A DNA stretch of 11,094 nucleotides from a bacterium (lineage in GTDB: Bacteria > Chloroflexota > Dormibacteria > UBA8260 > Bog-877): assembly GCA_021791455.1 (NCBI GenBank), contig JAJYWM010000168.1:1-11094 (forward strand), written 5' to 3'. Below, one piece after another: positions 2 to 11,054 of the stretch. A program made the translations under genes and the position numbers. Under the pieces are notes generated by a model. It made no database searches. It was not told where the DNA came from and saw only the letters and a program-made list of their open reading frames with translations. The stretch's first letter is position 1. Each line of letters opens with the position of its first letter.

Positions 2-496
2 CGCTACAGCTACGGCGTCGCAGGCTCTGTCGGGCTGCTCAGCGCCCGGATCTTCGGGTACAGCGATAGGGCCGTCCCTGGCTACGCCGTGGAACTAGGA
101 GAGGCGATGCAGCTGACCAACATCCTGAGGGATCTGTCCGAGGACCTCGGCAATGGGCGCTGCTATTTGCCGACCGAGGACCTGGAGCGCTTCGGCGTGA
201 CCCGCGAGGATCTCCTGGCCGGACCCCGCGGGCCTCACGCCCAGCATTATCGTGACCTCATGCGGTTCGAGGTCGCGCGCGCCCGGAGCCACTTCCGCAG
301 CGGGCTCCGGCTCGTTCCCCTGGTGGATCGGGATGCCCGCGGCTGCCCGGCCGCACTGGCGTCTCTCTACCAGCGACTCCTGGTCGAGGTCGAGCGCCGC
401 GGCTACGACGTTCAGGCGCAGCGCATCAGCCTTCGGAAGTCGCACAAGATGGGGCTGGCGCTGGGCGCGTGGTTGCGCGCCACCCTGCGACCGTGA
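2..496 (+). CDS. hpnD: Presqualene diphosphate synthase HpnD, C-terminal part (5' end outside window)
   Basis: The frame is open from base 2, so the gene begins upstream; about 164 residues of a family usually near 280 are present. It is the C-terminal half of a trans-isoprenyl diphosphate synthase of the squalene/phytoene synthase family. HpnD converts two farnesyl diphosphates (or the HpnC product) toward presqualene diphosphate for hopanoids. Visible hallmarks are YGVAGSVGLLSARIFGY at the left edge and the second Asp-rich motif QLTNILRDLSEDLGNGRCYLP-type segment, which binds Mg-diphosphate, followed by the basic C-terminal tail. The IFGY variant and the immediate hpnE neighbour favour HpnD over HpnC or a phytoene synthase (CrtB). 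The stop overlaps the hpnE start by four bases (GTGA, 493-496), indicating coupled translation. Family assignment is strong; HpnD versus CrtB rests on context. Confidence 0.88.
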   Translation, partial: RYSYGVAGSVGLLSARIFGYSDRAVPGYAVELGEAMQLTNILRDLSEDLGNGRCYLPTEDLERFGVTREDLLAGPRGPHAQHYRDLMRFEVARARSHFRSGLRLVPLVDRDARGCPAALASLYQRLLVEVERRGYDVQAQRISLRKSHKMGLALGAWLRATLRP

Positions 497-1831: not shown

Positions 1832-3295
1832 TCAGCCAATCCCAGCAGCCTCGCCGCGCTCGGCGGCCGACGACGGCTCCCCGCCCGCATGAAGCAGGTT
1901 CAACGCCTTTCGGAGCGCTTCAGTCAGAGCGCGAGCGGCCACCTGCTGGCGCCTGCCGACCGCAAGCAGGGAGGGCACGGCACCGGGCTGGCGGAGGAGC
2001 AGTCGCATCAAGAGGAGCGGGGATGGGCCCCTCCCACCCAGGCGCAGCAGGGCTCCCGCCTCGCCCAGGGGTTCTGCGGGGGTGTCCAGCACCACTCGCA
2101 GCCCGACGACCGAGGGCCCGAGGGATTCGATCCACGCCGCGGTCTCCATCTCCACCAACTCGGCCCCCTGGCTCAAGAGCGCCAGCCGCTGCTCCGGTCC
2201 GTCGGCGATCTCGGCCACACTGGCAAGACAACACGGCCGCCCCACCCCGCTCAGAAGGATGCTCTGGTTGGCCTCACCAACCAGGCGGATCCAGGCACCG
2301 GCCGGGGACAGCACCCGCTCCGCCACCCCCACCATGCCCAGTTCCCATCCGGCGGCGCAACCACCGGCTATCCCGGCCACCACAACGGCTGCGGCCGGGG
2401 GGACGGCGTGGGACGCCCTTGCGGCGGCCGCCTGACCCATCCCCGTCACCCATATCTCGACTGGCGCTCCTGGGCTATGCCACCTGATGCCCCAGGCGGT
2501 GCGCGATCGTTCCCATCTGAGGGGCAGGGCGGCCCTGGCAGCGGACGCCTCTGAGCTGAGCGCGCAGGCGACGATGAGCAAGCCGGTGGGGGCGGCCTCG
2601 GCATCCATCAGGCCCCTGGCGGCCAGCAAGCATAGGAGGATGACCCCTGCTGCCGCCGCCGCCGCCATCCCGACTCCCAGTAGCAGGGCGAGCACCGTGC
2701 CCTGGAGGAACACCGCGGCGAGCAGGATCCAGCACAGGCCAAGGCTCAGGGACCGTCCGGGGCGTGTCTCCCCTAGCCAGATTCGCAGCCAGACCTGGAG
2801 CAGCAGCCCGACCGCGAACCAGCCGGCGTAGTTCAGGGCGGAGACGCCAAACCAGACTCCCGTCCCCGGGGGGTAGCGATAGATCGACCCCAGAAACCAG
2901 TGCGCGCCCCTCAGGGCCACCGGATCCACGACGACGTCAAGGCCGACCATGAGGAGCGCGCCCAGCACGATCCGGGCGGGGCCACGCGCGCCCAGAGCGC
3001 CCAGGACGACGTAGGCGCTGTAGGCGAGCCAGGTGAAGCTCAGGCTGTCGAAAAGTGGTACCCCGAAAACCAGCCAGTCGTGTCTCAGCCCCGCCAGCCG
3101 GTAGTGGTAGACCCCGAATGGAATGCCGGGGCCCGAGACCGATCCCCACTCGGCCAAAAAGGCGATCGCCCAGCCTCCGATGAGAACCGCCAGCGCCACC
3201 CGCGCCCCGTGGCGCCGCCAGATGACGAAGGCCACCAGCAGCCAGGGCAGGAACGAGTACCAACGGTCAAGAAGCGGCAGAAGATACTGCGGCAC
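1832..3295 (-). CDS. Fusion protein: CruF/DUF422 carotenoid-hydratase-like membrane domain + HpnG-like nucleoside phosphorylase
   Basis: About 487 residues in one uninterrupted frame. Residues 1-230 are a polytopic membrane domain with roughly six or seven hydrophobic segments and CruF/DUF422 signatures: GIPFGVYHY (57-65), DVVVDPVAL (120-128) and FGVSALNYAGWF (149-160). CruF proteins hydrate the end of acyclic carotenoids. Residues about 238-487 form a purine-nucleoside-phosphorylase-like domain starting GLLIVACALSSEA, with GIAGG (308-312), VEMETAA (381-387) and an Asp in RVVLDT (404). HpnG, the hopanoid member of this fold, removes adenine from adenosylhopane to give phosphoribohopane. The start is GTG 3295: it lies one base after the hpnA stop and has AGGAGG at 3313-3308, 12 bases upstream. 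A further-upstream start at 3409 would run 113 bases into hpnA. Both domains look intact. The fused arrangement is unusual, and what the CruF-like part acts on is inference. Confidence 0.85.
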   Translation of the reverse strand: MPQYLLPLLDRWYSFLPWLLVAFVIWRRHGARVALAVLIGGWAIAFLAEWGSVSGPGIPFGVYHYRLAGLRHDWLVFGVPLFDSLSFTWLAYSAYVVLGALGARGPARIVLGALLMVGLDVVVDPVALRGAHWFLGSIYRYPPGTGVWFGVSALNYAGWFAVGLLLQVWLRIWLGETRPGRSLSLGLCWILLAAVFLQGTVLALLLGVGMAAAAAAGVILLCLLAARGLMDAEAAPTGLLIVACALSSEASAARAALPLRWERSRTAWGIRWHSPGAPVEIWVTGMGQAAAARASHAVPPAAAVVVAGIAGGCAAGWELGMVGVAERVLSPAGAWIRLVGEANQSILLSGVGRPCCLASVAEIADGPEQRLALLSQGAELVEMETAAWIESLGPSVVGLRVVLDTPAEPLGEAGALLRLGGRGPSPLLLMRLLLRQPGAVPSLLAVGRRQQVAARALTEALRKALNLLHAGGEPSSAAERGEAAGIG

Positions 3296-3296
3296 C

Positions 3297-4283
3297 TCAG
3301 GAGCCCGCCTCCTGTCGCCGCACCCGAAGCTCCATGACGGCTTCCCGCAGCGCCCGATCGAGATCGCCGGGAGACCACCCCAGCTCCTCCTGCGCCCGGC
3401 GGGAGTCAACCCACATGGGGTGGCCAGCCATACGCACGGCGGTCAGGGGAATCTGCGGCGGGCGTTGCCGGACCCACCCCGCGACCTCGCTGGCAGCGGC
3501 CGTGGCGTAGGCGATGCCGAGGGGGATCCTCCATCGGGGCGGTCTGACTCCCGCCCGGACCGCGACCTCGGCCAGCAGCTGGGCCATGGTCAGATTGCGA
3601 TCCCCGAGGATGTAGCTGCGCCCGGGCACGCCCCGCTCCAGTGCCAGCACATGGCCACGGCCGACCGCCTCGACGTCGACCAGGTTCAGCCCGGTGGCCA
3701 CGAATGCAGGTATCCGACCCGCCAGGAAGTCCCTGATCGTAGCGCCGGTCGGAGTCGGCCGCACGTCTCCGGACCCGACCGGGGTGCTTGGCTGCACCAC
3801 CACCACCTCCAGGTCCCGGCAGCCGAGCGCGATCCTCTCGGCGACCCACTTCGACCGCTTGTAGGGACCGGCCAGCGTCGCGGGGTCCTTCGCCTGGTCG
3901 ACCTCGGTTAGGACTCTTCCGCCTCGCTCAAAGGCCAGGGTGCCCACCGTGCTGCAGTGGACGACCCTGCGCACGCCCGCCTTCGAGGCGGCCCTGAGCA
4001 CGTTTCGCGTGCCCCCCACGTTGGTCGCGACCATGGAGGAGACGTCGGCCGCCCTGAGCGCCAGGCGATAGTCGGCAGCGCAGTGGACTATGGCCTCGCA
4101 ACCGGAAGCGGCCTCGGCCAGGGTGTGGGGATGGTTGACATCCCCGACCAAGACCTCGGACCGGCCTGCTGCGACCTTGGCTGGGCTGCGCGCCAGGATC
4201 CTCGTCTGGTGCCCGGACTCAGCCAGGGCGCGGACGACCGCCGCCCCGACGAAGCCAGAGCCGCCCGTCACAAGAACCCTCAT
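3297..4283 (-). CDS. hpnA: Hopanoid-associated NAD-dependent sugar epimerase-like protein HpnA
   Basis: About 328 residues of an extended short-chain dehydrogenase/reductase (NAD-dependent epimerase fold). The Rossmann motif VTGGSGFVG is at residues 5-13. The active site shows STVGT (111-115) and the catalytic pair YxxxK in GPYKRSK (Y141, K145). The segment QPSTPVGSGDVRPTPTG (164-180), with TGLNLVDVEAVGRGHVLAL and SYILGDRNLT after it, is the characteristic HpnA block that separates it from UDP-glucose epimerases. HpnA is recurrent in hopanoid clusters, but its substrate is not settled; a role in modifying the C35 side chain is the usual guess. Start ATG 4283 places MRVLVTGG at the N-terminus. 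The ORF extends upstream into the regulator gene, but the extra residues show no homology. It lies 19 bases after the regulator and one base before the CruF-HpnG fusion, so all three are probably co-transcribed. Confidence 0.9.
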   Translation of the reverse strand: MRVLVTGGSGFVGAAVVRALAESGHQTRILARSPAKVAAGRSEVLVGDVNHPHTLAEAASGCEAIVHCAADYRLALRAADVSSMVATNVGGTRNVLRAASKAGVRRVVHCSTVGTLAFERGGRVLTEVDQAKDPATLAGPYKRSKWVAERIALGCRDLEVVVVQPSTPVGSGDVRPTPTGATIRDFLAGRIPAFVATGLNLVDVEAVGRGHVLALERGVPGRSYILGDRNLTMAQLLAEVAVRAGVRPPRWRIPLGIAYATAAASEVAGWVRQRPPQIPLTAVRMAGHPMWVDSRRAQEELGWSPGDLDRALREAVMELRVRRQEAGS

Positions 4284-4302: not shown

Positions 4303-4998
4303 TCACCGCCCGCCCGACGGTGGCTTGGACGGAGCCAGGAGAACGTACCCATCGTTGCGGTGGGTCAGCAGCATCTGCGGGTGACTGGGATCGGCCTCCA
4401 ACTTGTGCCGCAGCCGATGCACGCACATCGTCACGGCCTGGGGGGTGGCGGCCGGATCTCCACCCCATGCACCCTCGATGATCTGGCTCCTCGTTACCAC
4501 CACGCCAGAGTTCACGGCCAGGTATTCGAGCAGGTCGGCCTCCCGGGGACTGAGAAAGTGGCGCCGTCCCTCGATTCGGGCGGACCTGCGCACCGGTTCG
4601 ACAACCAGTGGGCCGACCTCGATCGCCCGGCCCGCTCCTCGACGCTCGGTCTGGCGACGGCGCAGGATGGCGGCCATGGTCGCCTTGAGAATGGCAGGGG
4701 GGTAGGGCCTGGGCAGGACGTAGTCGGCTCCTGCCTCCATCAGGGCCGCCGCTTCCTGCAGGTCGCTGCTGGTGATGACGAGCGGCGCCGTCGTGAAGGT
4801 GCGGATGGACTCGACGCCCCGCACTCCCCGGAGTGGCCCCCGGTCAGCCAATATCGCGACCGGCTGCTCCTGGCGCACCCGCTGTCCCAGCTGCTCCGAG
4901 GTCGCGACCAGGACCACCTCGAGCCCTGGAATCTGCCCCAGCAGGTGTTGCGCCACGTCGGCGTAATCACGATCCGGCTCCAGAACCACAACCAGCAT
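4303..4998 (-). CDS. OmpR/PhoB-type response regulator with atypical receiver domain
   Basis: 231 residues. The N-terminal receiver (about 1-115) is followed by a winged-helix DNA-binding domain (about 126-222) with LSPREADLLEYLAVNSG, the recognition-helix region VTMCVHRLRHKLEADP and the terminal hairpin THRNDGYVLL. It should act as a cytoplasmic transcription factor. The receiver is unusual. The acidic pocket reads EPD (7-9) rather than two or three consecutive acidic residues, Asp52 in ILADRG is the probable phosphoacceptor, and Thr76 is in place. The normally invariant Lys before Pro (KP) is Arg97 (LPRPY). No histidine kinase gene is in the window. It is the first gene of the leftward operon with hpnA and the CruF-HpnG fusion, which suggests but does not prove that it regulates hopanoid genes. 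The ATG at 4998 has a weak GGAA Shine-Dalgarno-like element about nine bases upstream. Family assignment is firm; the signal and targets are unknown. Confidence 0.9.
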   Translation of the reverse strand: MLVVVLEPDRDYADVAQHLLGQIPGLEVVLVATSEQLGQRVRQEQPVAILADRGPLRGVRGVESIRTFTTAPLVITSSDLQEAAALMEAGADYVLPRPYPPAILKATMAAILRRRQTERRGAGRAIEVGPLVVEPVRRSARIEGRRHFLSPREADLLEYLAVNSGVVVTRSQIIEGAWGGDPAATPQAVTMCVHRLRHKLEADPSHPQMLLTHRNDGYVLLAPSKPPSGGR

Positions 4999-5066: not shown

Positions 5067-5945
5067 ATGACGCTCTTCAACTCGGAGGCCTTGCTGGACC
5101 GCCTGGAGTTCCTGGATGGCCCCGCCGACGCGCTGCAGCGCTGGCTTGGACGCGGCCTCAAGGCCGGGGGGCCCAGCGCGCAGACCGGCAAAGATATCCT
5201 CAATGGAGTGTGGCTCGGACACCCGCTGCACCCGGCACTGACCGACATCCCGATCGGTGCGTGGACGTGCAGCACCACCCTGGACCTGGTGGACCGCGGC
5301 CGGGGTGGGCCACTGGCCAGAGCGGCGGACATCCTCATCGGCGCCGGGCTCGCCTCGGGTCTCGGGGCCGCCGCCTCCGGGATCGCCGACTGGCACGACA
5401 CCTACGGGGCCGAGCGCCGCGCCGGCCTTGCTCATGCGCTGCTCAACTCAGCGGGGCTGGGCGCGTTCACAGGAGCCCTGGCACTGCGGCTCACCGGTCA
5501 TCGCTCCGCGGCGCGGCCCCTGTCCGTTATGGGCTACCTGCTGGCCTCTGCCGGGGCGTTCCTTGGCGGGGACATGGTCTTCCGGCTTGGGACTCAGGTC
5601 AACCGCAACGCCTGGGAGGAGGGGCCTCACGAGTGGGCGGACGCCGCCGCGGCTGAGGACATCTCAGAAGGCAAGATGCAGCGCTGCCAGGTTGGCTCAG
5701 CGAGCGTGCTCCTTCTGCGCCAGGGAGGCGAGATCTGCGCTATGAGCGCGGTCTGCTCCCACGCCGGCGGTCCGCTTGAGGAAGGCGAAGTGGTGAGTGG
5801 GACGATCCGATGCCCATGGCACGGATCCCGGTTCGACCTGCGGTCAGGTGAGGTGAGGCAGGGCCCGGCAAGCGTGAGCCTGCCCGTCTTCGAGACCAGG
5901 AGCACGGCCGCGGGACGAGTGGAGATAAGGAGGGCCCGCGGCTGA
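5067..5945 (+). CDS. DUF2231 membrane protein fused to a C-terminal Rieske [2Fe-2S] domain
   Basis: 292 residues. The N-terminal two thirds is a DUF2231-type membrane domain: GHPLHPALTDIPIGAW (51-66) is its signature, followed by about four hydrophobic helices between residues 55 and 175 with conserved-looking His110, His123 and Asp109-type polar positions. The C-terminal part (about 203-292) is a Rieske domain with Cys230-x-His232 and Cys249-x2-His252 in the CSHAGGPL and CPWHGSRF boxes. All four cluster ligands are present. It probably shuttles electrons at the membrane; the partner is unknown and no oxygenase or reductase subunit is adjacent. There is no twin-arginine signal, so the Rieske side is probably cytoplasmic, by inference. 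The start is fixed by a strong AGGAGG element. The gene is transcribed alone and diverges from the hopanoid operon. Confidence 0.88.
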   Translation: MTLFNSEALLDRLEFLDGPADALQRWLGRGLKAGGPSAQTGKDILNGVWLGHPLHPALTDIPIGAWTCSTTLDLVDRGRGGPLARAADILIGAGLASGLGAAASGIADWHDTYGAERRAGLAHALLNSAGLGAFTGALALRLTGHRSAARPLSVMGYLLASAGAFLGGDMVFRLGTQVNRNAWEEGPHEWADAAAAEDISEGKMQRCQVGSASVLLLRQGGEICAMSAVCSHAGGPLEEGEVVSGTIRCPWHGSRFDLRSGEVRQGPASVSLPVFETRSTAAGRVEIRRARG

Positions 5946-7261: not shown

Positions 7262-8086
7262 TTGAGGAGCTTTAATGAATGGGCTCAGCTGTTGATCGAC
7301 CGTGCCGCGCTCACCCCCGAGCCTGGCCCGCTGGCGACGGGTGAAGATGTCATCCGTCTGGTCGCGCGAAGTGGTGCAATCTGTGCGCTGACCGGAGCCG
7401 GTATCTCCACCGACTCTGGAATCCCAGACTTCCGGGGCCCAAATGGGCTCTGGACCCAGGACCCCTTGGCCCAAACCAGGAGCTCCCTCAACCATTACAT
7501 CCACGACCAGGCTGCGCGGCGGGCCACCTGGAGGCAGCGCGCGCGGGCGGAGGAGCCGGAGCCACAGCCCAACTCGGGACATCTGGCACTGGTTGACCTG
7601 GAGCGGCAGGGACGGTTGCAGGCGCTCGTCACTCAGAACGTGGACGGCCTGCACCTGCGAGCGGGGACGTCACCCGAGCGGCTGGTGGAGCTGCACGGTT
7701 CGTTGCGCGAGTTTATCTGCCTCTCCTGCGGCCATGGCGGGCCCATGGCCGAGGTTCTGGAGCGTGTCCGCCAGGGGGACGACGATCCCGACTGCCCCGC
7801 CTGTGGGGGGCTGCTGAAGTCAGCGGCGATCTCCTTCGGACAGAAGGTCCCGGTGGAGGCGATGCGCCGGGCCGAGAGTGCGGTGCGCGCCTGCGACCTG
7901 CTGCTCGTGGTGGGGACCAGGCTGGAGGTCTACCCCGCGGCTGAGCTGCCCCACCTGGCCCTCGCGGCGGACATTCCGATCGTGATCGTCAACGCCCAGC
8001 CCACGCGCTACGACCGTCACGCAAGGGCCGTCCTCCGCCAGCCCATATCGCAGGTTCTACCAGGCCTCCTGGCGCCCTCCGGCTGA
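7262..8086 (+). CDS. Sir2-family NAD-dependent protein deacylase (CobB-like)
   Basis: 274 residues from the TTG at 7262. It removes acyl groups from lysine using NAD+, releasing nicotinamide and O-acyl-ADP-ribose. The NAD-binding motif GAGISTDSGIPDFRG is at 45-59, TQNVDGLH at 124-131 and the catalytic His145 in ELHGS. A four-Cys zinc site is at C153/C156 (CLSC) and C178/C181 (CPAC). VVGTRLEVYPAAELP (217-230) is the C-terminal Rossmann element, with Arg where Ser is common in GTS. All catalytic residues are present. The start is uncertain: no ATG or GTG occurs in frame before the NAD motif, and the TTGs at 7262 and 7292 are the options. A GAGGAG at 7264-7269 sits before out-of-frame ATGs at 7275 and 7279. 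The gene converges on an HDAC-type deacetylase gene. The function is firm; the N-terminal 25 residues are not. Confidence 0.92.
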   Translation: MRSFNEWAQLLIDRAALTPEPGPLATGEDVIRLVARSGAICALTGAGISTDSGIPDFRGPNGLWTQDPLAQTRSSLNHYIHDQAARRATWRQRARAEEPEPQPNSGHLALVDLERQGRLQALVTQNVDGLHLRAGTSPERLVELHGSLREFICLSCGHGGPMAEVLERVRQGDDDPDCPACGGLLKSAAISFGQKVPVEAMRRAESAVRACDLLLVVGTRLEVYPAAELPHLALAADIPIVIVNAQPTRYDRHARAVLRQPISQVLPGLLAPSG

Positions 8087-8278: not shown

Positions 8279-9244
8279 CTAGTCCCTGGGGAGCCAGCTG
8301 GGAACGGGCTCCAGCCCCGCCAGCGTGAGCGTGACCGCGGTCGCGGCGACGGTCATCTGCTCGAGGTCGTAACCGCCCTCGAGGACCACCGCCACCCGGC
8401 TCGGGCCCGCGTCCGCCGCGACCTGACAGATGCGCTCAACCGCTGCCGCGTAGGCCCGCCAGTCCAGGGCGAGGTTGGCCAGGGGATCGGTCCCCAGGGC
8501 GTCGAAGCCGCAGCTGACCACCACCAGCTCCGGCTCATGGGCCGCCACCGCGGGCAGAATCACCTCCTCCATGGAACGCAGCCACTCCGAGTTCCCAGTG
8601 CCGGGGGCCAGCGGAACGTTGAGCGTCTTGTTGAAGCCCGCTCCCTCTCCCCTCTCCGAGGTCATCCCGCTACCCGGGTAGAGCGGCGACTGATGCAGTG
8701 ACGAGTAGAGCACGCTGCCGTCCAGCCAGAAGGCGTCCTGGGAGCCGTTGCCGTGGTGGACGTCGAGGTCCACGACGGCGGCCCGCTCCACGCCCAGGTC
8801 AGCCTGAGCATGGCGGACGGCGATCGCGACATTGTTGAAGAGGCAAAAGCCCATCGCCCGGTCGGGGGTCGCGTGATGGCCCGGGGGGCGCACCAGGGCG
8901 AATGCCGGCGTCGGGTGGGGAAGGCAGGCGACCTCGACCGCCTTCATGGCCGCGCCGACCGCGTCGAGCCCGATCTCGTACGACGAGGGGTTGCAGTAGG
9001 TGTCGGAGTCTATCCACCCCCCGCCCTGGAAGGCGAAGTCGCGGATGGAGCTCACGTGGGCCTCCGTGTGCACCAGGGTCAGGTCCTGCTCCTCGGCCGG
9101 CTCCCCGCTCAGCCACCATTGGTCGCGGATTCGAGGATCTCTTCTCAGGCCAGCGGTTATCGCCCTCAATCGGTCGGCTGACTCCGGGTGCCCCCAGCTG
9201 TCATGGCCGAGAAAGGTCGGGTCGTAGATCAGGGCCAGAGGCAT
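8279..9244 (-). CDS. Histone-deacetylase superfamily protein (AcuC/HDAC-like, zinc-dependent)
   Basis: 321 residues from ATG 9244. This arginase/deacetylase-fold family uses zinc to hydrolyse acetyl-lysine, or acetyl groups on polyamines and other small amides. Visible active-site blocks are RPPGHHA with the His pair (about 123-124), [11 protein letters not shown] (158-167) supplying zinc ligands Asp161 and His163, [10 protein letters not shown] with Asp248, and VLEGGYDL with Tyr292. All catalytic residues are present. An in-frame TTG at 9271, three bases after the upstream stop, is an alternative start. I prefer ATG 9244 because [15 protein letters not shown] aligns with the normal N-terminus; neither start has a good Shine-Dalgarno sequence. 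It follows the two YbjQ-type genes by 30 bases and is probably in their operon. Substrate (protein, polyamine or small molecule) is open. Confidence 0.9.
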
Positions 9245-9274
9245 AGAGGACGGTTCCGAGGTGCCGTCCAACTG

Positions 9275-10090
9275 CTACTGGTCCAGCGAGAGAACCATCT
9301 GGGGGGGAGCTATGCGGTGATCTTCCTTGGTGGGTCTGACGGCGGTCCCGACCGCGAAGAACTCGATCACGTGGCTGCCCCAGCCATGGTTGTTCTCCTT
9401 GATCTGGGCACCGACGATGCCCTCGGCGGAGACCTCCTCGGCCTCTGTCTGCATCCGCTCCATGGCCAGTTCCCGGGCGTCATAGAGCGCCTGAGTGAAG
9501 TTCGGCATCTCCTGGTTCTGGCCCATCTTGCGCATCCAGGCGCCCAGCCCCTGATGGGCGACGTGATACACGCAGGATCCCATGACCAGGGCCAGGGGGG
9601 CGTATCCGGCCTGCAACAGGGTCCAGAAATCCTGCCCCGAGAGGTCGGAGGTGAACGGCTTGCCCTTGGGCGTCTTCATGCTGCCCTGCTGGCTGCGCAC
9701 AGCCGTCCCCACGGCCATGAACTCGGCCAGCCCCTGGCCCCATTCGTACCTGTTGATGTCCAGCCTGACCCCGACGATGCCGTCGGCGCCCAGGACGTCG
9801 GCCTCCTCCTCCATCCGGCTCATGGCCAGCTCCCGGGCCTGGTACATGGCCTGACTCAAGACCTGCAGCTCCTGGTTCTGCCCGTAGTTGGCTATCTGCA
9901 GGCCGATGTGGTAGATGGAGCTGCCCACCACCAGGCCGACCGGTTCGAAGCCGGCCTCCTTGACCAGAAGGAACTCCGAGATCGAGAGGTCGCTGGTGAA
10001 GAGCTTTCGGTGCCCCTCGGTGCCCCGCATCTCGCGGAGCCGGTTCATGGCGTCCTGGGGAATCTCAGGCAGCCCCGGTTGGTCGGGCAT
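9275..10090 (-). CDS. Tandem two-domain YbjQ/UPF0145 family protein, paralogue B
   Basis: 271 residues made of two YbjQ (UPF0145, putative heavy-metal-binding) domains at about 31-132 and 146-252. Each domain has the order FTSDLS, an AG(F/Y)xP hydrophobic strand, (V/M)GS.(I/V)YH, a helix with ARELAM and M..EA, then GIVG, and ends EFxAVGTAVR. A single YbjQ protein is about 100 residues and forms a pentamer; no biochemical role is established, and the metal-binding label comes from structure. The last residues, MVLSLDQ, resemble the end of its neighbour (MVISLRT). There is no signal peptide or membrane segment. ATG 10090 is well supported by AAAGGAGG at 10105-10098, seven bases upstream, which overlaps the stop codon of the preceding gene. 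It is followed after 30 bases by the HDAC-like gene. Confidence 0.87.
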   Translation of the reverse strand: MPDQPGLPEIPQDAMNRLREMRGTEGHRKLFTSDLSISEFLLVKEAGFEPVGLVVGSSIYHIGLQIANYGQNQELQVLSQAMYQARELAMSRMEEEADVLGADGIVGVRLDINRYEWGQGLAEFMAVGTAVRSQQGSMKTPKGKPFTSDLSGQDFWTLLQAGYAPLALVMGSCVYHVAHQGLGAWMRKMGQNQEMPNFTQALYDARELAMERMQTEAEEVSAEGIVGAQIKENNHGWGSHVIEFFAVGTAVRPTKEDHRIAPPQMVLSLDQ

Positions 10091-10097
10091 GCGCTAG

Positions 10098-10105
10098 CCT
10101 CCTTT
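10098..10105 (-). promoter_or_regulatory. Perfect Shine-Dalgarno sequence overlapping the upstream stop codon
   Basis: AAAGGAGG on the minus strand shares two bases with the TAA (10106-10104) of the upstream paralogue and lies seven bases before ATG 10090. This points to coupled translation of the two YbjQ-type genes. Confidence 0.85.
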
Positions 10106-11054
10106 ACGTTCTGAGTGAAATTACCATCTTGGGTTTCTCAAACTTCGGGGCGGCGGCGTGGGGGGAAACCGCGGTCCCGAGGATCACCCATTCGATGATC
10201 CTGCCCCCGACCGACTCCGAACCAGTGGGAAACTCCAGGACGTGTGACTCGATCTCGACCCCAACCACACCGCCGGCCCTCACGTCGGCGGCCTCCCGAG
10301 CCAGGCGCCGGCGGCTCATGTCCTGGGCCCGGGCCAGGGCCAGGGTGTAGCTCGCCACCTCCTGGTTGGTCCAGGCGGAGACGCCCATGCCACCCAGGCG
10401 GCCCATCCCCAGGCCACCGCCGAAGTAGGCAATGGCCTGATAGGCACTGGCTCCCATCACCAGACGCAATGGGCGGTGGCCTGCAGCGAGCAGCTTGGCC
10501 ATCTCCTGGCCACTCAGGGTGGACGTGAAGGGCGGGCCGGCGGGGGCGGCCCCGTCCTGCACGACAGCCGTGCCGATCACGGTGAACTCGGCCATGCCGG
10601 TGGCCCATTCCCAGCGGTTGATCTTGAGGCGGACGCCAACCACCCCCTCCGCTCCCAACCCCTCGGCCTCCAGGCTCAGGCGGTGGATCGCACGTTGCCG
10701 TGCCTCCATCAGTCCGGTCGTCAGCATGGAGTTCTCCTGGGGCTCGGAGCCTCCGTAGCCCATGCTGGAGAAGCCCCCGCCGACATTGCCCCAGCCGGTG
10801 GAGATCCAGCCCATCCGGTAGAGCGAACTTCCCAGCACCATCGCCACCGGGCGGTAGCCTATCGCCCTGAGAGCCGCCATCTCGTCAACCGAGAGATCGG
10901 AGGTGTAGGCGCCTCCCTCTGTCGTCTGGCGCTTGATCCGCTCCTGGGCCTCCAAGGGGATCCCCCCGGACTCGACCATCTGGCGGCTTTGCTCCAGGCG
11001 CTGCTGCTGCTCTGGGGTCAGCTGCCCGCCGCCTCCGCCGCGAAAAAAGCGCAC
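10104..11054 (-). CDS. Tandem two-domain YbjQ/UPF0145 family protein with glycine-rich insertions, paralogue A
   Basis: 316 residues from GTG 11054. A Gly-rich and Gln-rich N-terminus (FFRGGGGG, then a TPEQQQRLEQ helix) precedes two YbjQ-type domains at about 50-165 and 176-297. Domain 1 ends VGVRLKINRWEW..AEFTVIGTAVV. Domain 2 is more divergent, ending with an extended EFPTGSES insertion before EWVILGTAVS. Each domain has a Gly-rich loop where paralogue B has none (about 87-102 and 211-224). The N-terminal IPLEAQERIKR also matches IPQDAMNRLRE of paralogue B, so the similarity runs the full length. The start is a GTG just six bases after a possible upstream stop codon, with no clear Shine-Dalgarno sequence; Met26 is a less likely alternative. 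Cellular role unknown. It shares an operon with paralogue B and the HDAC-like gene. Confidence 0.85.
   Translation of the reverse strand: MRFFRGGGGGQLTPEQQQRLEQSRQMVESGGIPLEAQERIKRQTTEGGAYTSDLSVDEMAALRAIGYRPVAMVLGSSLYRMGWISTGWGNVGGGFSSMGYGGSEPQENSMLTTGLMEARQRAIHRLSLEAEGLGAEGVVGVRLKINRWEWATGMAEFTVIGTAVVQDGAAPAGPPFTSTLSGQEMAKLLAAGHRPLRLVMGASAYQAIAYFGGGLGMGRLGGMGVSAWTNQEVASYTLALARAQDMSRRRLAREAADVRAGGVVGVEIESHVLEFPTGSESVGGRIIEWVILGTAVSPHAAAPKFEKPKMVISLRT

What the first reader, a model, noticed from the sequence alone, without database searches (positions are those of the whole stretch)
1832..3295. Fusion of a CruF/DUF422 membrane domain to an HpnG-like hopanoid phosphorylase
Seen: one unbroken frame joins an intact DUF422-type membrane domain (GIPFGVYHY, VDPVAL, ALNYAGWF) to an intact phosphorylase domain (GIAGG, VEMETAA), next to hpnA, hpnE and hpnD. 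Known: HpnG acts on adenosylhopane, while CruF hydrates carotenoid ends; they are normally separate proteins of different pathways. Inference: the fusion either tethers HpnG to the membrane where its lipid substrate sits, or the CruF-like half itself acts on a hopanoid or squalene substrate, which would be a new role for DUF422. There is no carotenoid gene in the window, which favours a hopanoid link.
Basis: partly seen in the sequence, partly recalled or inferred. Interest (0 to 1): 0.72.

Follow-up and report, generated by a model that had tools for sequence, protein, structure and literature searches.

The report
Hopanoid enzyme fused to membrane domain
Some uncultured soil bacteria carry one protein that joins an enzyme for making sterol-like hopanoid lipids to a membrane domain usually labelled a carotenoid enzyme, and comparisons with other bacteria suggest that this branch of the membrane family works on hopanoids instead.

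Summary
The fusion is real. One 487-residue frame (3295..1832, minus strand) joins a seven-helix DUF422 (PF04240) domain to a nucleosidase of HpnG/MTAN type, one base after hpnA, in a hopanoid locus. The database holds 62 other near-full-length copies. In the window's class (Dormibacteria, inferred) 18 of 110 genomes have it; 17 of those have shc and 16 hpnH. The 11 other genomes with DUF422 have neither.

The nucleosidase half keeps MTAN's catalytic acids and branches with unfused HpnG-like proteins of hopanoid-making Dormibacteria. The DUF422 half is far below the CruF cut-off and falls with DUF422 proteins of Geobacterales, Nitrosomonas, a methanotroph and a planctomycete, away from carotenoid-type CruF. 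In Geobacterales that DUF422 co-occurs with an HpnG/MTAN-like nucleosidase (118 genomes both, 17 neither, 6 discordant), within 1 kb in 59 of 118. In a sample of Nitrosomonas's order, 5 of 5 strong carriers have hpnH, against 32 of 399 overall.

Best reading: HpnG removes adenine from adenosylhopane and the DUF422 half does a neighbouring step on the hopanoid side chain. The chemistry is inferred; whether the Geobacterales nucleosidase is HpnG or MTAN is open. New variant of known kinds.

The parts
1832..3295 (-). DUF422-HpnG fusion gene, 487 aa plus stop, GTG start
2633..3259 (-). DUF422 (PF04240) domain, residues 13-221; seven long helices in the model; E49, D73, D83, D120, D124, N155 invariant in 58 aligned fusions
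2582..2611 (-). linker, about residues 229-238; substitutions look unconstrained over residues 223-238
1886..2581 (-). HpnG/MTAN-type nucleosidase half, about residues 239-470; E249, E384, D404 align with MTAN E12, E174, D197
3308..3313 (-). AGGAGG, possible ribosome-binding site 12 bases before the GTG start
   Evidence: sequence printed
3297..4277 (-). hpnA (SDR family, function not established); stop lies one base before the fusion start
4303..4998 (-). OmpR-type regulator (receiver match under cut-off), same strand, upstream of hpnA
   Evidence: kept next to hpnA in L001-L005
469..1830 (+). hpnE, hydroxysqualene dehydroxylase, convergent with the fusion
2..496 (+). 3' part of hpnD, presqualene diphosphate synthase

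Best explanation
A conserved two-domain protein of C35 hopanoid side-chain synthesis. The C-terminal half is the adenine-cleaving step (HpnG role: adenosylhopane to ribosylhopane), on the cytosolic side. The N-terminal half belongs to a hopanoid-linked branch of DUF422. It is not a carotenoid hydratase but an active, probably cofactor-free membrane enzyme that acts on the hopanoid just before or after HpnG, most simply on ribosylhopane on its way to bacteriohopanetetrol, beside HpnA encoded in the same run of genes. Shown here: architecture, conservation, ancestry of the HpnG half, co-occurrence with shc and hpnH, recurrent linkage of this DUF422 branch with HpnG/MTAN-type nucleosidases, conserved acids. 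Inferred: substrates, reaction, membrane side, co-transcription.
For: 62 other near-full-length fusions. Fusion in 18 of 110 genomes of the class; shc in 17 of 18 (16 over cut-off, G195 in pieces) and hpnH in 16 of 18. HpnG half branches with unfused HpnG-like proteins of shc-bearing Dormibacteria (97/94, then 94/94) and keeps the catalytic acids. DUF422 half falls with rows from hpnH genomes (hpnH) and shares residues with them that are nearly absent elsewhere. Geobacterales: DUF422 and nucleosidase in 118 genomes together, 17 neither, 6 discordant; within 1 kb in 59 of 118. Order of Nitrosomonas: 5 of 5 strong carriers with hpnH against 32 of 399. DUF422 half more conserved than the HpnG half (mean pairwise identity 0.65 against 0.49).
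Against: No biochemical evidence at all. The HpnG match is far under its cut-off. Most hpnH genomes lack this DUF422: 27 of 32 in the Nitrosomonas order and all 27 shc/hpnH Dormibacteria without the fusion, so it is not essential to the pathway. The Geobacterales nucleosidase scores about equally as MTAN: 3 of 7 scanned pass the MTAN cut-off, 4 of 7 score higher as MTAN-type, and it groups with E. coli MTAN (87/92). In 48 of 118 Geobacterales the two genes are far apart or on different contigs. Outside these, the DUF422 genes of Nitrosomonas, Methylotetracoccus and the planctomycete have no HpnG-like neighbour in the DNA held. L086, next to a P450 in a genome without shc or hpnH, falls at the base of the hopanoid-linked side, on a long branch. 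Tests are not corrected for kinship or genome gaps.
Confidence: 0.5

Rival explanations
1. The DUF422 half is a lipid handler: it binds, presents or flips adenosyl- or ribosylhopane, feeding HpnG or passing its product outward, without chemistry of its own.
For: Loop charges put the conserved loops 2 and 4 on the side opposite the C-terminal domain in most groups. In 6 of 22 Geobacterales genomes checked, DUF422 lies directly downstream of an MlaD gene, with MlaE before it in the two read and scanned.
Against: Conserved acids shared with the CruF family, whose known members are hydratases (PMC6013536, passages). Loop 4 of the fusions is itself positively charged, so the topology is weak. 16 of 22 Geobacterales loci show no MlaD in the DNA held, mostly 1.5 kb upstream.
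Confidence: 0.22
2. The DUF422 half acts on the C30 stage: hydration or dehydration between diploptene and diplopterol, or on squalene, in line with CruF chemistry on an isolated double bond.
For: CruF-type enzymes hydrate an isolated C=C without cofactor (PMC6013536, passages); the locus makes squalene and hopene.
Against: The fusion and the Geobacterales neighbour are with the nucleosidase, not with shc or the squalene genes; in the four Geobacterales hpnH loci read, shc is on another stretch than DUF422.
Confidence: 0.12
3. The DUF422 half is a passive membrane tether for HpnG.
For: HpnG's substrate is a membrane lipid, and a tether would explain the fusion alone.
Against: The DUF422 half is the more conserved one (33 of 222 invariant positions against 21 of 232; pairwise identity 0.65 against 0.49), with lower pN/pS, and keeps polar family-wide residues. 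Unfused copies persist in other groups.
Confidence: 0.1
4. The DUF422 half is a carotenoid hydratase (CruF) that happens to be fused.
For: Pfam and source names call it carotenoid biosynthesis; family-wide residues are shared.
Against: 35.7 bits against a CruF cut-off of 154.7; outside the side of the tree with carotenoid-context and Chloroflexota rows; squalene genes and no carotenoid-specific gene in the window. Carotenoid genes elsewhere in carrier genomes were not searched.
Confidence: 0.04

Closest known systems
HpnG, hopanoid-associated phosphorylase (TIGR03468)
   Same: MTAN fold, three aligned acids, place in hopanoid-making genomes and loci
   Different: Fused to DUF422; 41.3 bits against a cut-off of 187.1. 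The cut-off was reached by no gene in 110 class genomes or 141 Geobacterales, and a Methylotetracoccus HpnG-like gene beside shc scores 179.6
CruF, carotenoid 1,2-hydratase (TIGR03460, NF045693; PF04240)
   Same: Seven-helix domain, E49, Y63, Y65, D120, D124, N155, W159 nearly universal
   Different: Subfamily residues D83, W133, Y139, Y141 and others; hopanoid rather than carotenoid genes nearby; far under CruF cut-offs
5'-methylthioadenosine/S-adenosylhomocysteine nucleosidase (MTAN)
   Same: Fold and the hydrolase-type acid corresponding to E12
   Different: MTAN models do not match the window protein at E <= 1, whereas HpnG does
Chloroflexota DUF422-acyltransferase fusion (PF04240 + PF01553)
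   Same: A DUF422 domain N-terminal to a second enzyme domain (L021, L026)
   Different: CruF-like DUF422 (267.7 bits to NF045693, cut-off 400) and an acyltransferase instead of a nucleosidase

Membership tests
PF04240 (DUF422) | Pfam gathering score of 25 bits | tested here: met
   62.6 bits over residues 13-221
CruF hydratase (TIGR03460) | Curated cut-off of 154.7 bits | tested here: not met
   35.7 bits
CruF hydratase | Carotenoid genes in the neighbourhood | tested here: not met
   None in the window proteins scanned or among five L005 neighbours scanned; the rest of the genomes was not searched
CruF hydratase | Hydration of acyclic or monocyclic carotenoids | not testable with these tools
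   Needs an assay
HpnG (TIGR03468) | Curated cut-off of 187.1 bits | tested here: not met
   41.3 bits; so it is called HpnG-like here
HpnG | Phosphorylase/nucleosidase (MTAN-type) fold | tested here: met
HpnG | Acids aligned with MTAN E12, E174, D197 | tested here: met
   their roles are recalled, apart from mutant titles
HpnG | Presence in genomes with shc and hpnH | tested here: met
   17 of 18 and 16 of 18 carriers
HpnG | Cleavage of adenosylhopane | not testable with these tools
   Needs an assay
MTAN | Match to the MTAN models | tested here: not met
   No MTAN model listed for the window protein at E <= 1; fold alone is shared

The most novel reading that the evidence does not exclude
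The hopanoid-linked DUF422 branch is an unrecognised enzyme of C35 hopanoid side-chain synthesis, in some lineages the missing conversion of ribosylhopane towards bacteriohopanetetrol (perhaps with HpnA as the reductase), and the Dormibacterial fusion passes the HpnG product straight to it.
Probability: 0.3. Interest if true: 0.85.

Novelty: new variant of a known kind. Interest (0 to 1): 0.66.

Why it matters
Hopanes are widely used molecular fossils of bacteria, yet the enzyme that makes bacteriohopanetetrol from ribosylhopane is described as not established, and so is the function of HpnA (PMC12583986, passages). A fusion in one group plus a gene-neighbour link in another names a concrete candidate family, found in 121 of 141 Geobacterales genomes (two genomes' copies were seen to be, or include, another type or a poor match, so the hopanoid-type number may be slightly lower), where deletion in a laboratory strain could test it. 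It would also mean that proteins auto-named 'carotenoid biosynthesis protein' in these groups (e.g. Geobacter) are misnamed.

Tried and rejected
Sequencing error or chance fusion: rejected. Carotenoid role: disfavoured. A separate HpnG in carrier genomes: a further weak HpnG-model hit exists in 9 of 18, never on the hpnH contig. Six of the nine were fetched; one (L108) was scanned and scored best as uridine phosphorylase (68.8 bits against 56.6 for HpnG); the other five were judged only by similarity to it. Fold of the DUF422 half: no PDB match by Foldseek at E <= 0.001, best E 0.55; this does not show that the fold is new. phmmer of the whole fusion against PDB sequences: nothing at E <= 10. 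Mla-type transport as the main partner of Geobacterales DUF422: MlaD in 6 of 22 genomes only. A Python query labelled HpnH was in fact a MoaA-like protein; replaced, and no conclusion rests on it.

Literature: CruF with hopanoid, 0 papers; at least two of hopanoid, DUF422, PF04240: 2 papers, of which I saw passages of one (PMC8692599: it counts PF04240 and squalene/hopene cyclase domains among terpene clusters; no fusion in the passages seen) and the other only in the listing; Dormibacter with hopanoid, 0; hpnG, hopanoid, fusion and carotenoid together, 1, listing only. Searches gave listings, from which I read passages of PMC12583986, PMC5642901, PMC6013536 and PMC5358736. Most subscription journals are missing, so I do not claim that the link is unpublished.

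Not done: a search of whole carrier genomes for carotenoid genes, hpnN or hpnO (cap reached); tests corrected for kinship or completeness; inter-domain distances in the model; the whole genome of the window, which is not held.

Full report
WHAT IS THERE. The frame 3295..1832 (minus strand) encodes 487 residues without a stop. Residues 13-221 match PF04240 (62.6 bits, cut-off 25). Residues 278-459 match NCBIfam HpnG (41.3 bits, cut-off 187.1), and CruF scores 35.7 (cut-off 154.7). The GTG start lies one base after the hpnA stop, with AGGAGG 12 bases before it, so hpnA and the fusion are probably co-transcribed (inference), after an OmpR-type regulator on the same strand. hpnE and the end of hpnD run convergent.

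A REAL, CONSERVED PROTEIN. Of 65 database hits, 63 cover 77% or more of the query; one is the identical protein, leaving 62; ten of the listed source names include Dormibacteria or Dormiibacterota. The two exceptions (P0065, P0066) match the DUF422 half only and were not pursued. Against six relatives pN/pS is 0.35-0.58 in the DUF422 half, 0.49-0.75 in the HpnG half and 0.76-1.45 in the linker. Synonymous changes are near saturation, so these ratios are rough.

LOCUS. L001-L005 share regulator, hpnA, fusion and hpnE; hpnD is present in the three whose contigs reach that far; the deacetylase, sirtuin and DUF2231-Rieske genes on the other side are all found in L002-L004, and L005 lacks a match to the sirtuin. 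In L005 the order continues hpnC (248.4 bits, just under its cut-off of 250.45), shc, a polyprenyl synthase and ispH, and L092 shows the same order by similarity. In the 16 carriers with hpnH it lies on another contig than the fusion.

DISTRIBUTION IN THE CLASS. The class of G004 has 110 genomes held. The fusion is in 18: 15 match both halves in one frame (two lack the first 22 or 59 positions; G003 has two copies; the one stop reported, in G188, is the last codon of the match, compare), and 3 (G191, G192, G193) are cut by contig ends (locus lengths). shc is in 17 of 18, G195 in two pieces under the cut-off, G190 none. hpnH is in 16 of 18, G190 and G001 none. Fisher p is 2e-7 and 3e-6, uncorrected for kinship or genome gaps. 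Eleven other genomes have a DUF422 and none has shc or hpnH; partial shc-model hits under 37 bits were ignored. Twenty-seven genomes have shc or hpnH without the fusion, and none of these has a DUF422 match. By my count, 19 of those 27 have an HpnG-like hit within about 6 kb of hpnH on the same contig.

THE DUF422 HALF. Alone it models with mean pLDDT 93.0 and seven long helices. In a 55-row tree the 14 fusions, 13 Geobacterales rows and the Methylotetracoccus, Nitrosomonas and planctomycete rows form one side with support 100/99, together with one long-branch Dormibacterial row, L086; without L086 support is 92/85. The tool warns about long branches, and the drawing root is the midpoint. E49 and Y63 are kept in all groups, and Y65, D120, D124, N155 and W159 in all but one or two rows. 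D83 is D in all 30 hopanoid-side rows and I, V or M in the others; W133, Y139 and Y141 behave alike, and G130 and G136 nearly so; D73 is D or E there. In the fusion alignment 33 of 222 positions are invariant in this half against 21 of 232 in the other, and mean pairwise identity is 0.65 against 0.49. A mere anchor would not be expected to be the more conserved half. Loop charges suggest that the HpnG side is cytosolic and conserved loops 2 and 4 face outward, but loop 4 of the fusions is itself positive, so this is weak.

GEOBACTERALES. The order of G009 (record titled Geobacteraceae; order name inferred) has 141 genomes: 121 have DUF422 and 121 an HpnG-model hit at E <= 1e-12, none over the cut-off; 118 both, 3 and 3 discordant, 17 neither (Fisher 3e-16). 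Distance, of 118: within 1 kb 59, all convergent; 1-12 kb 11; farther on one contig 11; different contigs 37. hpnH is in 125 of 141 and tracks DUF422 (both 114, DUF422 only 7, hpnH only 11, neither 9; p 2e-5) and the nucleosidase (115, 6, 10, 10; p 2e-6). Nine genomes lack all three, among them three of 4.8-5.5 Mb.

Against a clean reading: of seven of these nucleosidases scanned, three score highest as HpnG and four as MTAN-type, three pass the MTAN (TIGR01704) cut-off (L074, L078, L094), and they group with E. coli MTAN (87/92). At this threshold 120 of the 121 genomes have just one such gene, while E. coli, which has an MTAN, also rings. So it is the likeliest HpnG there, but it may be MTAN or serve as both. 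In four hpnH loci read (L128-L131) shc, an hpnA-like gene and hpnH lie together with no HpnG-like match. One of the drawn loci, L059, is a DUF422 of another type, in a genome that also has the usual one. Geobacter is reported to make BHT cyclitol ether and BHT glucosamine (PMC5642901, passages).

A THIRD GROUP. In 399 genomes of the order of G007 (Nitrosomonas; Burkholderiales in GTDB is recalled), the profile of nine unfused DUF422 proteins finds five strong carriers (over 200 bits; G746's copy has in-frame stops) and two weak ones (50 and 55 bits). All five have hpnH, the two weak ones do not, and 32 of 399 have hpnH overall (p 2e-6). The profile contained G007's own sequence. 27 of the 32 hpnH genomes lack a strong match. 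The four carriers' loci L099-L102 show no HpnG-like gene in the roughly 1.5 kb held on each side. A database search with the same profile gave 2212 proteins at E <= 1e-30, 120 listed.

MECHANISM. From PMC12583986 (passages): HpnH makes adenosylhopane, the putative phosphorylase HpnG removes adenine to give ribosylhopane, the enzyme giving BHT is not established, and neither is HpnA's function. CruF-family enzymes are cofactor-free, membrane-associated hydratases (PMC6013536, passages). From fusion, neighbourhood, co-occurrence and conserved acids I infer that the DUF422 half acts on the hopanoid side chain next to the HpnG step. Because many hpnH genomes lack it, it must be one of several solutions to that step or a lineage-specific modification. 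A precedent for DUF422 fused to a second enzyme domain is the Chloroflexota DUF422-acyltransferase protein.

VERDICT. Observation confirmed; the hopanoid interpretation is partly supported and extended. Known folds and families in a new pairing, plus an apparently unnamed hopanoid-linked branch of DUF422.

Noticed in passing
window 5067-5945 (+): A DUF2231 membrane domain joined to a Rieske ferredoxin domain in one protein, divergent from the regulator next to hpnA; relatives sit at the same place in L002-L005.
   Followed up: no
window 7262-8086 (+) and 8279-9271 (-): A sirtuin (SIR2) and a histone-deacetylase-type protein as neighbours, kept beside the hopanoid genes in L002-L004.
   Followed up: no
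window 9275-10090 (-) and 10104-11054 (-): Two neighbouring proteins with YbjQ (PF01906) matches, each apparently holding more than one copy of the unit by eye (one search counts two stretches in the first).
   Followed up: no
window 4303-4998 (-): OmpR-type regulator with a receiver match under the Pfam cut-off (18.7 against 30.2); unfused HpnG-like genes of L090 and L091 also lie next to a regulator of this kind.
   Followed up: partly
L021:1351-3072 and L026:667-2286: In Chloroflexota genomes a CruF-like DUF422 domain is fused to an acyltransferase domain (PF01553).
   Followed up: partly
L093, L094, L095, L009, L064, L073 (Geobacterales): DUF422 lies directly downstream of an MlaD lipid-transport gene in these 6 of 22 genomes checked, with MlaE before it in L094 and L095.
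   Followed up: partly
L086:4764-6822: A lone DUF422 at the base of the hopanoid-linked side of the tree lies next to a cytochrome P450, in a genome without shc or hpnH.
   Followed up: no
L126 (G265:C161:1-6000): A second HpnG-like gene of 184 bits beside an shc-like gene in a Geobacterales MAG that also has the usual gene; it may be contamination.
   Followed up: no
P0065, P0066: Two short relatives whose sequence matches only the DUF422 half; by eye their tails look like another frame of the fusion, not tested.
   Followed up: no
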